From Ophiosphaerella korrae (taxonomy: Eukaryota > Ascomycota > Dothideomycetes > Pleosporales > Phaeosphaeriaceae), in NCBI GenBank assembly GCA_028456385.1, contig JALNQF010000096.1:1-64000 (forward strand): a DNA stretch of 64,000 bases. The letters run 5' to 3'. Both the position numbers and the translations under genes were made by a program. The notes under the pieces were generated by a model. The model worked only from the letters and a program-made list of their open reading frames with translations, did no database searches and was not told where the DNA came from. The first letter of the stretch is position 1. Each line of letters starts with the position of its first letter. Shown here piece after piece: positions 12,138-17,969 of the stretch.

Positions 12138-12142
12138 AGGCT

Positions 12143-12181
12143 GCATGTCATCTAACCATGGGTTTGCCAAGGATGCCATGG
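12143..12181 (+). repeat. Left terminal inverted repeat of the MULE
   Basis: 39 bp matching the reverse complement of 17915-17953 except at two positions. It contains two CCATGG palindromes, a motif that recurs in the subterminal region. Confidence 0.9.
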
Positions 12182-12220
12182 GCCTAACCAAGAAGAGGCA
12201 CCGAAATACAGCCGACGTTC

Positions 12221-12300
12221 AGCCCATGGTTAGGCCGAATTTTCCCATGGTTAGGCCGAGTTTTCCCATGGTTGAGCAGAGTTTTCTTATGGTTATTTCT
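12221..12300 (+). repeat. Subterminal 21-bp tandem repeats of the MULE
   Basis: About three and a half copies of a 21-bp unit with core CCCATGGTTAGGCCGA then TTTT, decaying rightward. Arrays like this near transposon ends commonly serve as transposase-binding sites; that role is inference here. Confidence 0.7.
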
Positions 12301-12323
12301 CGTAAAATCACGTTCTAAACACA

Positions 12324-15300
12324 ATGGCCAGCTTAGATACTGCATTTGGCCTGTTCAACCCTTTCGCTATCTGGAGGGAAGATTCTATTGATGAAGATCG
12401 CACGCTTGAGCTTGGGGACCTATTTGCCGCCCCCGTTGATGGCAGTAGGGACGAAACAACTGACCCTACCCAGGTAAAGTAGTTTAGAACACGTTCTAAA
12501 TGCGTTCTAACTGACGTGTAGGAAACTCTTACTATATTCACGGTTGGTAACAGTAGAGGCCCTCCCCTCTCTGCCGCAAAGGTACTATGGGTACCGGCTG
12601 TGCCTATGTATCCTTCAAGTGTTGATGGAGGGTGCGCCTACGTTGTTCCTATTACAAGAACTGATTTTGGTGAACTACCAACGAAGAAGCAGATTTTGAG
12701 GAAGGCTACACAGGTAAACGCACGTTAGAACACGTTGTAAACACAATCTAAATATATTCTAGTTCCAATATTCGAAGGCTACTAAAACGAACGATCGTCC
12801 AACAATATCACCTTTTTTCAATAACCTACCTGCAACAAGATGGAGGTATAACTGTACAGGTATAAAGAGGTGCCCTTATCTCTCAGACGCTTTACGAATA
12901 CATCCGCATCGTAGTGTTGACGATGAGCTTTGGGAGAAGATTAGGAAACTTCGACACGCTCCTGGGAAACTTCTTACTACTGCAAAGCAGAAGGCTACAA
13001 GGTAGGTTTGAACGCGTTTTAGATTAGTTCTAAACGTGTTTTAGTACATCTGCTAATATAGTAGTGTCTACATTGGAGTACAGAAGCGATTTGAGTTGGG
13101 TGCATGCCTTCAACCTAACGATAACTGTGGGCCTGTTATTCTAGAACAGACACGCATAGTACGTAGTAAGCTAGATTATATTAAGAACACGTTGCTAACG
13201 TGTTTAGCCAATAGCTGGAAAGTGTCAGCCCTTTATTGGATGTAGAAGCTGGTCCCGGCAGACACAAGATGTAGAGAGGCACTTTACCCGGAGTATTAAT
13301 CCAGACGTAGATCTTGAATACCTTAAGCATTTGTTTGAGCATGGATTACCAACTGAGGAGCAGGAAGTAGAGCGCTGTTACGTTGTTGAGCCTACGTCAG
13401 CTAGGGTAGACAAGTGCAGTAAGTTTTGACGATTCGAATTCGAATCCGTTGCGAATATGTTTCTAACGTGTTTAAAGATATTGACCATGCCCAAGGTCCA
13501 GGAATTCTCGTACACGACAACTGTGAGGCCTATTACCATATTATCATTCCAAATGACATCCAGACGTCTCCCTATTTTGTTCTAATTGTATTTGGAGAAC
13601 ATACCCATATCCCACCACCTCCTTCAATAGCAGAGGATGAAGATATAAGGGGCTTAGAGGAGGTTTTGCGACCTATGTTAACCCCAGGCCTAACAAGATG
13701 TAGGTCTATACAGAAACGGGATTGGAGAGTGTTTCTAACGTGTTTAGCCCAGTTTCTTAATTCGCCCCAGCTTAAGGCATATCTTTCTAGCCGTGGTATT
13801 CGTTCTGTTGAGGAGCTACATGCTGCATTTGCAAATAAGGATCGTATTACAACTATTATTAAAAGGGAGAAGCTAAGTCGATTCCCCTATCGTCACGGAG
13901 TTGAAAGTGTTGTATATGAGTGGAGGACTCGGCATCAGATCCCGGAAACGGTATGAAGATGTTTGAAACACGCTCTAAACGCAATCTCATGATAAGTAGG
14001 CATATATCCGGCAGGTCCTGTCTGGCGTGTCAGGCGATATTATTGTCTGTTTCTTCGATGAACAGGCAAAGATCCTACTTGACCTCGACACGTTCCAGAT
14101 AGATATGTCGTATAAGCGTCTCCGTGGAAGTTGGGCAGAGATCCTGATAGCTGCCTTTCATTCAAGACAGAACAAACGTAGGGGTTGAGTACAAATACGA
14201 TTAGAACGCGTTCCTAACTAGTTTCAGTCATCACGCTTGGCCGGATTATTACTGATACATCCTATCGCGATATGTACGAGTTGAGCTTTGCAAGCTTCTT
14301 CAAGCTTGCGGGCGAGCGTGCAGGAAGGCCTGTACAATGGCGTCACCTTCATGGAACTGGGTTCTATGGAACTACCATTGACATGTGCAGTAAGCAGATG
14401 GGAGGTAAGATATTTTACCTAAACGTATTCAGAACACTATTGAAACGCGTTCTAGGCCTTGGGCGATATCTGAAGAGTATTGATCCACAAGGTAGAAACT
14501 GGAGATGGCAACTAGCTTCGTGTGCTCGGTTCTGTCTAGTTCACTTTACACGAACGATTAATACTGCATGTGGACCTGGTTCATTACATACTGAAGACTC
14601 TCCTTGGGGCCGTATGATGCAGGTCCAAAAAGCTGAAAGAGCTGAGGAGTACTTTGAACTATTAGATCTCTTAGCTTGTAAGTCTCTCCAACGTGTTTGT
14701 AACGTGTTCTAATTGTGTTTTAGTGCATGAAGATTCTCAATTTGTTCGAAACTGGGCTATTAACAAGAAAAACCCAGTTATTGCAGCTGGGATAGTGAGG
14801 TGTTGTAGTAATATGAATAAAGATGTATGGAATAGGTTAGAGTCGCATACAAACGCGGCTGAGCAAGCTGGGCAGAAGAGCTATAAAACAGGGATACAAA
14901 CTCCACTCCTAGAGGCCATACTAAAGTAAGTACTGTAGATTGTATTGAGAACGTACTCCTAACGTGTTTAAAGCGGCCTACAAATGGATCTCCAAGATGT
15001 ACTTGAGTTTGATGGTATGGATAAATACGGTACCCGTAGATCCTACCGCGGGCTAGCATCTATGTCGCAGCGATACTCGTTAAATAGAGGGAGAGAGAAG
15101 AGTAAGTACTCTCTAATGACGTTGTTGATATTCCTACTAAAATATGTTTAGAACGTACTCGAAAGCAGTTTGAAGCTGAGACCAATATCTCTGACAGCGA
15201 TGAGGATCTACTAAGTATTGAAATGCCAGTAAGGGGTCGAAGGGCTACTCCAAGAGGAGCACTGCGTAGAGGAGGAACCCCACGTAATCAAACTCGGTCG

Positions 15301-15606
15301 CCCTCAGTTACAGTGGCGAGGTCTTCACCAGCAAGATCATCACCAGCAAGATCGTCACCAATCCCAGGGTACGATATAGAACTTGTTTCAAACGCCTTCC
15401 TAACGTGTTCTAGGCCTATAAGCTCGCAGGTAGGCGTCCAGAGCCTTGCCCGGCAGGCTATAACATCAAATCAAGCAATTCAAGACCAACAGAGGTTGCT
15501 CGAGATCCAACAGGCGGCCTTTGAGCTTAAGAGGAAGGAATTTGAGCTCCAGAAGGAGATAGAAGAATACAAAGAGAGGAAACAGCGGGAGGCAGTAGCC
15601 AAATAG
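12324..15606 (+). CDS. MULE transposase, 876 aa, 14 exons
   Basis: Exons: 12324-12473, 12522-12713, 12763-13001, 13062-13158, 13208-13418, 13478-13699, 13748-13950, 14000-14177, 14228-14404, 14456-14677, 14724-14925, 14974-15101, 15152-15368, 15414-15606. All 13 joins are GT-AG and in phase. An N-terminal Cys/His region (CTGIKRCPYL, then an EHTHIPPPP block) resembles the WRKY-GCM1/FLYWCH-type finger of Mutator-like transposases. The catalytic part follows: a first Asp in FQIDMSYKR, a second in TTIDMCSKQ, and a Glu in ESHTNAAEQ, giving a D-D-E order. The C-terminus is Ser/Pro/Arg-rich and ends in a Glu/Lys coiled coil. Functional residues are assigned by pattern and spacing, not alignment. The introns consist largely of 11-bp units (see findings). 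A further intron-like segment follows the stop at 15607-15654. Confidence 0.8.
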
Positions 15607-15747
15607 GTTTGAGCAGTATAAACAGGCTTAGAACGCGATCTAAAGATGTTCTAGCGTGGAAAAATTTTCTTCGCTTAAAATCTCCATTTTTCCTCACCCC
15701 GCTTCTCTATATCATTCTCTTCTATCTCCTCTATCTCTATCTACAAT

Positions 15748-16594
15748 ATGGGGAACAAGACTCTACTTCTTATGGTATGCAACTAGATCATGTTTTAAAC
15801 GCGTTCTAATCTCATTTCAGCCAATTTATCAGAGATATGCTGAACCAGCTTCTCTGCCGCCGGGTACACCTGAATTCATTGAGAATGTCGATGGCTTCTG
15901 TACTGTATATCCTGGCGAGTTATTCTGCAGAGCAAAGTGGACCCCATACGATGAGCAAGTATGCGGAGTACGTACTTAAACATGATCTAAATGTGTTTGC
16001 AACGCGTTCTAATTTTACACTAGAAGAAATTCAGCGATCGAGGTGCTTTGATCCATCACATCCGGCGAGCCCATCTAGTGTACAAGATTGATTCTGTTAA
16101 GACTGGGCGGCGTTCAATTTCTGAAGAGGCTAATGCTCTCTACTTCTACTACGCAGTAGTTATGCCTGGAGATCCACGGTCAAAAGAGTTCTGGGACGCA
16201 TGCAAATCACGTTCCTTAACAATTCCTCCTACAGTAACTCAACAAACTGCTGGAGAACCTGAGGAGGAACTTAGAGGCCAATCGGAAGATCTGGAACGCG
16301 TTGTAAACGCGTCTGAAACACGTTCTCCCTCACTAGATCCAGCTTCTCCCCCCCCACGTCCTTCAAAACGACAGAAGCAGTCATATATACAGTCTCGTGT
16401 AGAAGAAGAGATTACTCCGTTGCCGGTAGATAAGTCTCTTCCCAAGAATCTTATTCCTGTACCAATATACCGGGTAAATAACTCAAAGCGAGGGCAAGTC
16501 AAGGGAGAGGTAAGTTTCTGTTAAAACGTCTTTGTATTACGTTTATAACACGTTTCAGGTCAACATAAATAAATGCCATCAGCTTCTCGCATAA
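15748..16594 (+). CDS. MULE accessory protein A, zinc-finger-like, 228 aa
   Basis: Four exons: 15748-15774, 15821-15958, 16024-16509, 16559-16594, in phase. Near the N-terminus FCTVYPGELFC and later ALIHHIRRAH give a Cys-x8-Cys ... His-x4-His arrangement, interrupted by an intron, which looks like a single BED/C2H2-type DNA-binding finger. The rest is low-complexity Ser/Pro/Glu-rich with a basic SKRQK stretch that could be a nuclear signal. It lies 142 bp after the transposase stop on the same strand. Exon 3 contains, in frame at 16294-16326, three of the 11-bp units that elsewhere form introns. I know no named homologue. It may help bind transposon ends or regulate the transposase. Confidence 0.6.
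16294..16326 (+). repeat. Three 11-bp units inside a coding exon
   Basis: GAACGCGTTGT, AAACGCGTCTG and AAACACGTTCT stand head to tail within exon 3 of accessory protein A and are translated as 11 residues without disturbing the frame. Confidence 0.75.
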
Positions 16595-16826
16595 AATAAT
16601 CTCCTACCTGTATGTGAGGTTTGCAGCGAGAACAATAATGCAAAGTGTATTTTTATCGGGTCCTGTATAAGTAGAAAGTACTTTAATTTTACATAGAGCA
16701 ACTGCACACAGTAATATAGTAGATCTTTCATTAAAGAAAACTACGAACCGAACCGAAATCTCTTATTATCTATTTACGAACATGTTTCAACCTACATTGA
16801 AACTTGTTCCACCCATCTGCTAGAAA

Positions 16827-17743
16827 TCAACCATAGATTGGCTGAAGGTCGAAATACTTAATATTAGCGCATGAGTCCTCTGCATTGGCGCCAGAGGAGA
16901 AGAAACATACTGGAACATGTTAGAAAGACACTTCAATCACGTTTCAATTTCTTACTCTCAGTATTTTTATCTTCCTCCAGACAGCTGGCACAAGGGACCT
17001 GGCGACGCTGAACACCGAGAATGTAGGACATGCTAACCACATCAAGCTGGAACATGTTAACATCGCATTTACAACACGTTTCAATATACCTACCTCAGGC
17101 TCACCACCCTCTGGAGTAGTGAAGAGTGGCTGCATGCGCGAGTTGAGCTCCTGCATGGCGACGCGGCGAAGTTGCTCGCGCTCTCGCGCGTCGCGGGTCT
17201 CTCGGCGGATGATACGATCATGGCGCTCCATCATATCATCGTAGAACTCTAAAAGCATTATTAGAACATGTTTATAACTTGCACAAAACGTGTTGCAATC
17301 TATAGACACAATGTGCCATATTATAAAACGTGCTGCAGACGTAATTGAAATATGTTTCAACTTACTCTTGACTTTCTGACCGTACGCCGTAGACGGCTTG
17401 CCCTTGTTGTCAGAGTCAACCGAGTCCAGCTTGTGCTGCACCCAGAGATGATTCACAAGCACGCCGCGCGTGCTCACTTTAGCCTGATCACATTAGAATA
17501 TGTTTAGATCGCGTTAGCAACGTGTTTCAATACATACACCGCACAGGGTACCATCATCGTACTGGAAGCGACAACGGATCTCGCCGAAATGGACGATCGG
17601 GTCACCGTTCGCATTTTCTTCGAATGGCTCGAGGCTGCGGGGAGGATTCGCTTTGTAGCGGAGATAGGATGGCTGGAACATGTTTAGAGCGCGATCAAAT
17701 CACGTTTCAGTTGACTTACATGGCTGTCGAGAATTCCTGGCAT
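16827..17743 (-). CDS. MULE accessory protein B, zinc-finger and coiled-coil, 198 aa
   Basis: Six exons on the minus strand: 17720-17743, 17540-17672, 17366-17476, 17094-17248, 16956-17046, 16827-16909, all in phase from ATG to TGA. Residues about 43-70 show Cys-x9-Cys and His-x4-His (IRCRFQYDDGTLC, NHLWVQH), the same finger type as protein A. A strongly charged helix rich in Arg and Glu follows (RHDRIIRRETRD onward), then a CASC pair that could be part of a second metal site. It is convergent with protein A, separated by 232 bp. It may be a DNA-binding partner of the transposase. The 117-bp intron at 17249-17365 is twice the usual size and might hide a small exon. Confidence 0.6.
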
Positions 17744-17797
17744 CGTGTTGAGATCGCGTTGAGATTGTGTTGCAAACTTGTTGTTAACGTGTTCTAG
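17744..17797 (-). repeat. 11-bp tandem array upstream of MULE protein B
   Basis: On the minus strand four to five tandem units of an 11-bp motif (AACACGTTAAC-like to AACGCGATCTC) run up to the start codon. These are the same units that make up the element's introns. This may be a 5' UTR intron or a protein-binding array. Confidence 0.6.
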
Positions 17798-17914
17798 CAA
17801 TATTGTGTTGGGGTTGAACTCGCTTAGAGTTGTGCGCATGCACTAACCCGAGCCCGGCGTAGTCATCACATATATGGCCTAGCGCTGTTTCCATGGCATC
17901 CCCGGCTAATCTTG

Positions 17915-17953
17915 CCATGGCATCCTCGGCTAACCCATGGTTAGATGACATGC
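17915..17953 (-). repeat. Right terminal inverted repeat of the MULE
   Basis: Inverted partner of 12143-12181. A further CCATGGCATCC unit lies just inside it at 17891-17901, a partial repeat of the inverted repeat's inner part. Confidence 0.9.
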
Positions 17954-17959
17954 CAACAC

Positions 17960-17969
17960 TCGTCTTCCC
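17960..17969 (+). repeat. Right target-site duplication of the MULE
   Basis: Direct copy of 12128-12137 immediately outside the right inverted repeat. Confidence 0.75.

What the first reader, a model, noticed from the sequence alone, without database searches (positions are those of the whole stretch)
12324..17743. Introns of one transposon built of tandem 11-bp units
All three genes of the MULE have introns (21 in my models) and most consist of a GT donor followed by three or four head-to-tail, degenerate 11-bp units ending in the AG acceptor. Consensus is close to AACRCGTTCTA; examples are AACACGTTGTA/AACACAATCTA/AATATATTCTA in the intron at 12714-12762 and AAACGTGATTT/GATCGCGCTCT/AAACATGTTCC in a minus-strand intron at 17673-17719. 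The last units supply the branch-site-like CTAAC and the acceptor. Plus-strand and minus-strand genes use the same unit relative to their own direction. One unit is about one helical turn, so the introns could double as ordered arrays of binding sites for the transposase or its zinc-finger partners, or could have arisen by spread of one satellite as introners do. I know no description of such introns.
Basis: partly seen in the sequence, partly recalled or inferred. Interest (0 to 1): 0.92.

Follow-up and report, generated by a model that had tools for sequence, protein, structure and literature searches.

The report
Transposon introns built as binding-site arrays
A fungal jumping gene carries nearly all its introns, and some of its other DNA, as head-to-tail 11-letter units that look like docking sites for a protein, an arrangement resembling one that an Arabidopsis transposon uses to escape silencing; what the units do here is not yet shown.

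Summary
The element (12138-17960; 9-10 bp target duplication, inverted repeats) has three genes and 21 introns. Intron interiors match themselves at lag 11 at 0.470 against 0.270 in shuffles (z 12.3); gene 1 exons and intron-like strings outside the element do not. The unit is a palindromic 8-bp core AACRYGTT plus a 3-bp spacer. 19 of 21 introns hold a strong tandem pair wholly inside. Arrays also lie upstream of genes 1 and 3, behind gene 1, inside a gene 2 exon, and in small derivatives. The same RIP-affected genome holds a second family (gene 1 38-52% identical) with introns at 12 of the 13 gene 1 positions in the same phase and the same unit, and a third whose unit has another centre (RY in 7 of 30 units against 27 of 33). 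Best reading: docking arrays for an element-encoded DNA-binding protein, working like VANDAL21/VANC arrays, with introns as main carriers. Introner-like spread and a purely splicing role are disfavoured. Not shown: splicing by RNA, the binding protein, the function. Apparent shielding of arrays from RIP is largely a sequence-context effect.

The parts
12138..17960 (.). whole element, about 5.82 kb; ends uncertain by 1 base because the target duplication can be read as 9 or 10 bp (12128/12129-12137 and 17960/17961-17969)
   Evidence: inverted repeats; target duplications; a 99.98% identical copy at another site
12143..12181 (+). left terminal inverted repeat, 39 nt, 95% complementary to the right one
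17915..17953 (-). right terminal inverted repeat
12324..15606 (+). gene 1, transposase-like, 876 aa, 14 exons, 13 introns: 12474-12521, 12714-12762, 13002-13061, 13159-13207, 13419-13477, 13700-13747, 13951-13999, 14178-14227, 14405-14455, 14678-14723, 14926-14973, 15102-15151, 15369-15413
15748..16594 (+). gene 2, C2H2-like zinc-finger protein, 231 aa, introns 15775-15820, 15968-16023, 16510-16558
   Evidence: (PF00096 E 4e-4, 21.2 bits, below the cut-off of 25.2)
16827..17743 (-). gene 3, paralogue of gene 2 (35% over 93 residues, E 9e-12), 201 aa, introns 17673-17719, 17484-17537, 17249-17365, 17047-17093, 16910-16955
   Evidence: no database homologue
12307..12325 (+). two-unit array directly upstream of gene 1, running into its start codon
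15621..15650 (+). array directly behind the gene 1 stop codon
16295..16324 (+). three-unit array inside the gene 2 coding exon
   Evidence: a strict pattern finds it in 7 of 14 related loci searched
17742..17793 (-). five-unit array directly upstream of gene 3, overlapping its start codon
12223..12295 (+). 21-bp tandem repeat CCCATGGTTAGGCCGAGTTTT, 3.5 copies, next to the left end; different from the 11-bp unit

Best explanation
The 11-bp units are binding sites for a DNA-binding protein encoded by the element itself, most likely one of the two C2H2-like zinc-finger proteins (genes 2 and 3) or the transposase. The palindromic core AACRYGTT suggests a dimer per unit, and the 11-bp step, about one helical turn, would put successive dimers on one face so that they bind cooperatively. 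The arrays are spread over the whole element at about 240-bp steps; because most of the element is coding, the places that can hold them are mainly introns and gene flanks. Occupancy would mark the element against host silencing, as VANC arrays do, or act in transposition or expression. Shown: the arrays, their period, spread, persistence between families and a family-specific centre. Inferred: that a protein binds them, which one, and anti-silencing as the purpose.
For: Arrays outside introns: upstream of genes 1 and 3, behind gene 1, in a gene 2 exon, and in derivatives: L041 (inverted repeats, 10-bp duplication, five arrays), L040 (668 bp, inverted repeats, 9-bp duplication, three arrays, no tblastn match to the three proteins, though one end is 66% identical to the gene 3 upstream end), L047 (inverted repeats, no duplication found, three arrays). 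24 arrays along the element, mean gap 237, CV 0.32, against 0.94 for random placement (0 of 10000). A full family B element has 22 arrays. Lag 11 in 12 family B introns z 8.3, in 5 family D introns z 7.1; orthologous A and B intron interiors are only slightly more alike than non-orthologous ones (0.593 against 0.538; 1 of 5000 permutations reaches it), so the unit stayed while much of the rest turned over. Centre RY in 27 of 33 (A), 20 of 24 (B), 7 of 30 (D); A against D p 3.7e-6. Genome-wide three cores at period 11 occur 68 times, reversed control 0; period 12 none, its reversed control 1. Precedent: VANC21 on VANDAL21.
Against: No binding data. The zinc-finger match is below Pfam's cut-off and both structure models are too poor to use (mean pLDDT 41.6 and 34.9). 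Array spacing is partly just exon spacing and uniform placement is a weak null. A and B do not differ in the centre (p 1.0). The RIP test gave no clear sign of occupancy: C-to-T at CpG is 0.110 in cores against 0.540 outside introns and cores; with one, then two-plus-one, then two-plus-two flanking bases matched the expected value is 0.175, 0.172, 0.150 (0, 7 and 302 of 5000 permutations); for CpA the observed 0.470, 0.470, 0.464 stand against 0.591, 0.577, 0.548 (8, 82, 634 of 5000); copies are related, so these are not independent. Two of 21 introns lack a strong pair, and family B's intron at residue 741 shows no array by eye.
Confidence: 0.6

Rival explanations
1. Introner-like origin: a satellite or intron unit spread and created these introns, and the repeat is only a trace of that birth.
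For: Most introns share one unit; introner-like elements are known in Dothideomycetes as near-identical intron copies in unrelated genes (PMC4457414, passages).
Against: 12 of 13 gene 1 intron positions are shared in the same phase with family B (each in 1 to 6 of 6 copies) and two with the gene 2, gene 3 and family D relatives, so the introns are old; units are kept although sequence turned over; arrays lie outside introns. Of 11 array loci that I chose from the listed places without a listed gene 1 hit, 10 carry genes, ends or relatives of this transposon clan and one (L044) is unassigned.
Confidence: 0.1
2. Splicing role only: the units are repeated branch-site and acceptor signals (CTAAC, YAG) that strengthen or regulate splicing.
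For: The last units supply CTAAC and the acceptor in many introns (sequences).
Against: The signal persists without the last 20 nt (z 6.7); the palindromic core is no known splice signal (recalled); arrays occur upstream of genes, in an exon and in a derivative without a recognisable gene.
Confidence: 0.12
3. Transposition sites: the arrays are bound by the transposase itself, as subterminal repeats are in other DNA transposons (recalled), with no role in silencing.
For: Deletion derivatives keep several arrays (five in L041, three in L047).
Against: Arrays run through the whole element instead of clustering at the ends; the left end has its own different 21-bp repeat.
Confidence: 0.15

Closest known systems
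VANDAL21/VANC21 of Arabidopsis (Hosaka 2017, PMC5735166, passages; Sasaki 2023, PMC10398659, passages)
   Same: Short motifs in dense tandem arrays in introns, intergenic and terminal non-coding DNA; motifs differ between related families; several genes in the element; turnover with the motif kept.
   Different: Here the motif is palindromic with a strict 11-bp step, most introns are largely array, one array is coding, the host is an ascomycete, and no VANC relationship, binding or anti-silencing was shown or tested.
Fungal Mutator-like element Mutyl (passages of PMC6446971 and PMC5014426)
   Same: Ascomycete host, 9-10 bp target duplication, inverted repeats, C2H2 finger, additional protein gene.
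   Different: Three genes with 21 introns; no Pfam MULE domain found. The passages I saw do not mention such arrays; the original Mutyl paper was not held.
Introner-like elements of Dothideomycetes (PMC4457414, passages)
   Same: Short introns sharing sequence, in the same fungal class.
   Different: In what I examined confined to one transposon clan, positions old, arrays also outside introns.
RIP homology recognition by triplets at 11 or 12 bp period (PMC4858203, passages)
   Same: 11-bp periodic triplets (AAC, GTT), in an element with RIP-damaged copies.
   Different: Arrays here are about 20-50 bp, whereas that paper says homology is integrated over hundreds of base pairs; not tested.

Membership tests
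VANDAL/VANC-type system | tandem motif arrays in introns and other non-coding DNA of the element | tested here: met
VANDAL/VANC-type system | motif differs between related families | tested here: met
   A against D differ (p 3.7e-6); A against B do not (p 1.0)
VANDAL/VANC-type system | element-encoded VANC protein that binds the motif and removes methylation | not tested
   no comparison with VANC was run and binding cannot be tested here; Pfam gave only a weak C2H2 match for gene 2 and none for gene 3
Mutator-like element | target duplication of about 8-11 bp (range recalled) and terminal inverted repeats | tested here: met
   9-10 bp in 8 of 9 copies and derivatives tested, none in L047; inverted repeats
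Mutator-like element | MULE transposase domain | tested here: not met
   Pfam gives only unrelated sub-threshold matches for gene 1 and for P0001-P0005; an invariant D, D and E could be a DDE triad, which is inferred
Introner-like element | near-identical copies as introns of unrelated host genes | tested here: inconclusive
   none shown among the 11 loci chosen; only about the first 100 places were listed

The most novel reading that the evidence does not exclude
A fungal transposon clan has independently evolved a VANC-like system in which introns are kept chiefly as evenly spaced docking arrays for its own zinc-finger protein, binding site and protein changing together between families, to hold off methylation or other genome defence in a RIP-active host.
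Probability: 0.35. Interest if true: 0.87.

Novelty: new variant of a known kind. Interest (0 to 1): 0.74.

Why it matters
It would give introns of a selfish element a function other than splicing, would be a second and independent case of arrayed self-recognition in a eukaryotic transposon, in a kingdom with a different defence (RIP), and offers families in which site and protein specificity can be compared. It also gives a testable reason why a transposon should keep 21 introns, many at fixed positions.

Tried and rejected
Scans of viral contigs and genome contigs (prokaryotic) with the gene 1 alignment found no relative. Gene 3 has no database homologue. Structure predictions of a gene 1 and a gene 2 homologue were of too low confidence for a fold search, so none was run. 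The PDB profile search gave two chance-level matches, E 0.31 and 0.54; Rfam none. A first sign that arrays are shielded from RIP shrank when flanking context was matched; it stays significant with little context and is lost with two bases on each side. The Lentithecium protein P0004 seems to read through an intron end that resembles one unit; a single unit is no evidence of an array, so it is not used. Paper searches bearing on a prior description; in the listed titles and starts of abstracts I saw no such fungal arrays. The library is open-licence only and long result lists were capped.

Limits: family B models come from RIP-damaged copies; several placed an intron at a neighbouring residue or in another phase (54, 195, 234, 371 in phase 2, 443, 494, 497) and these rows were left out of the orthology count, as was the heavily damaged L028. 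Position 813 was not recovered in family B. My family D gene 3-like model meets a stop at residue 169, before its fifth intron, so its introns 4 and 5 are uncertain, yet all five were used for the family D lag test. Eight 3-kb loci cut out (L029-L036) were not analysed apart from their overlap with others. One search took gene 1, 2 and 3 to end at 15608, 16588 and 16800, slightly off the final limits. Searches used a gene 1 protein that still contained the in-frame intron.

Full report
What it is. The window lies in a 63.0 Mb genome of 974 contigs. Its element's proteins have their closest database relatives in Melanomma, Lentithecium, Zopfia and Lindgomyces; Lentithecium is a Pleosporales, Zopfia a Dothideomycetes of uncertain order. 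The element spans 12138-17960 with 39-nt inverted repeats and a 9-10 bp target duplication; 8 of 9 copies and derivatives tested show one, L047 does not. A copy 99.98% identical over the full length sits on another contig between a different duplication, so it moved recently.

Genes and introns. Gene 1 (876 aa) has 13 introns, gene 2 three, gene 3 five. Homologous proteins span 11 of the 13 gene 1 junctions by my reading, including the in-frame intron at 13700-13747 that all four homologues lack; single homologues have extra residues at 438, 498 and 741. All three gene 2 junctions are spanned. Genes 2 and 3 are paralogues (35% over 93 residues) and share the position and phase of their first two introns, as does a family D gene. 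Splicing itself was not observed.

The repeat. Lag-11 identity inside introns is 0.470 against 0.270 in dinucleotide shuffles, lag 22 0.434 against 0.271; lags 10 and 12 are near the shuffles. With the last 20 nt removed lag 11 stays at z 6.7, and lag 12 shows a lesser rise, z 2.8; gene 1 exons and 42 unverified intron-like strings outside the element show no lag-11 signal. The motif fitted from 61 units is AACRYGTT plus a spacer near YTA; the core matches its own reverse complement. Tandem pairs are roughly a thousand times denser in introns than in the rest of the window (36 in 1114 against 2 in 58159), with a matrix fitted on those introns; a matrix-free count gives 15 pairs at distance 11 in introns, 6 elsewhere in the element and 1 in the rest of the window, and none in the element at 8-10 or 12-15. 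19 of 21 introns hold a strong pair wholly inside.

Not only introns. Arrays lie immediately upstream of the gene 1 and gene 3 start codons, behind the gene 1 stop, and in the gene 2 coding exon, where a strict pattern finds the same sequence in 7 of 14 related loci. Homologues from Zopfia and Lindgomyces have E-R-V-x-N-x-L at that place, which two units in this frame would encode; this is suggestive only. L040, 668 bp with inverted repeats and a 9-bp duplication, has three arrays and no tblastn match to the three proteins, although one end is 66% identical to the gene 3 upstream end. L041, 1.03 kb, has five.

Other families. Family B (six loci, RIP-damaged, gene 1 38-52% identical) has introns at 12 of the 13 gene 1 positions in the same phase, each in 1 to 6 copies, several copies being partial. 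Lag 11 there gives z 8.3. Orthologous A and B introns are 0.593 alike against 0.538 for non-orthologous ones (1 of 5000 permutations): common origin, but large turnover outside the unit. A full family B element, L024, has 22 arrays. Family D (L037; its gene 2 match holds few stops) keeps AAC--GTT and period 11 (z 7.1 in five introns, two of them uncertain), but its centre is RY in 7 of 30 units against 27 of 33 in A and 20 of 24 in B.

Genome-wide. Three cores at period 11 with at most one mismatch occur 68 times (the pattern is palindromic), 0 in the reversed control; at period 12 none, reversed control 1. The near-palindromic two-unit pattern gives 108 forward and 113 reverse matches, many of them the same sites, control 0. 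I fetched 11 array loci without a gene 1 hit listed, chosen by me from the listed places: 10 carry genes, ends or relatives of this clan, one (L044) is unassigned. The listings stop at about 100 places, so host introns with arrays are not excluded.

Function. Even spacing (24 arrays, mean gap 237, CV 0.32), a palindromic unit, a one-turn step, presence outside introns and in derivatives, and a family-specific centre fit docking sites for an element-encoded protein. VANDAL21 is the working analogue: VANC21 binds a 9-bp motif arrayed in tandem in introns, intergenic and terminal regions, and related families have other motifs. Membership is not claimed. RIP-like change is evident (in L011 406 C-to-T type changes, 310 in CpA context, 5 transversions), so a defence to evade exists. 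The low mutation of array CpGs (0.110 against 0.540) falls to 0.110 against 0.175 with one flanking base matched (0 of 5000 permutations) and to 0.106 against 0.150 with two on each side (302 of 5000). That is inconclusive. It does show that the unit's CpG contexts (ACGT, GCGT, ACGC) are rarely mutated also outside the cores.

Noticed in passing
12223-12295: A different tandem repeat, 21 bp, CCCATGGTTAGGCCGAGTTTT, next to the left end.
   Followed up: no
L009 (G000:C335:133500-141500): A copy 99.98% identical to the window element at another site with its own target duplication: recent movement.
   Followed up: partly
L011-L021: Copies carry RIP-like damage, and CpG sites in ACGT, GCGT and ACGC contexts are rarely mutated inside or outside the arrays.
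   Followed up: partly
L037 (G000:C778:374500-384400): A third family with a gene 3-like and a gene 2-like gene, no significant gene 1 match (best E 0.43), and a variant unit.
   Followed up: partly
L044:1919-2037: Two four-unit arrays with no similarity to the known families and no inverted repeat pair within the fetched 4 kb.
   Followed up: partly
P0005: A Mycena protein (1491 aa) is a distant gene 1 relative (24% over 71%, E 2e-13), so the gene family may reach basidiomycetes.
   Followed up: no
L022-L027 against the window element: The gene 2 region is 75-84% identical in DNA between families A and B while gene 1 pieces are 64-67%, which suggests exchange between families.
   Followed up: no
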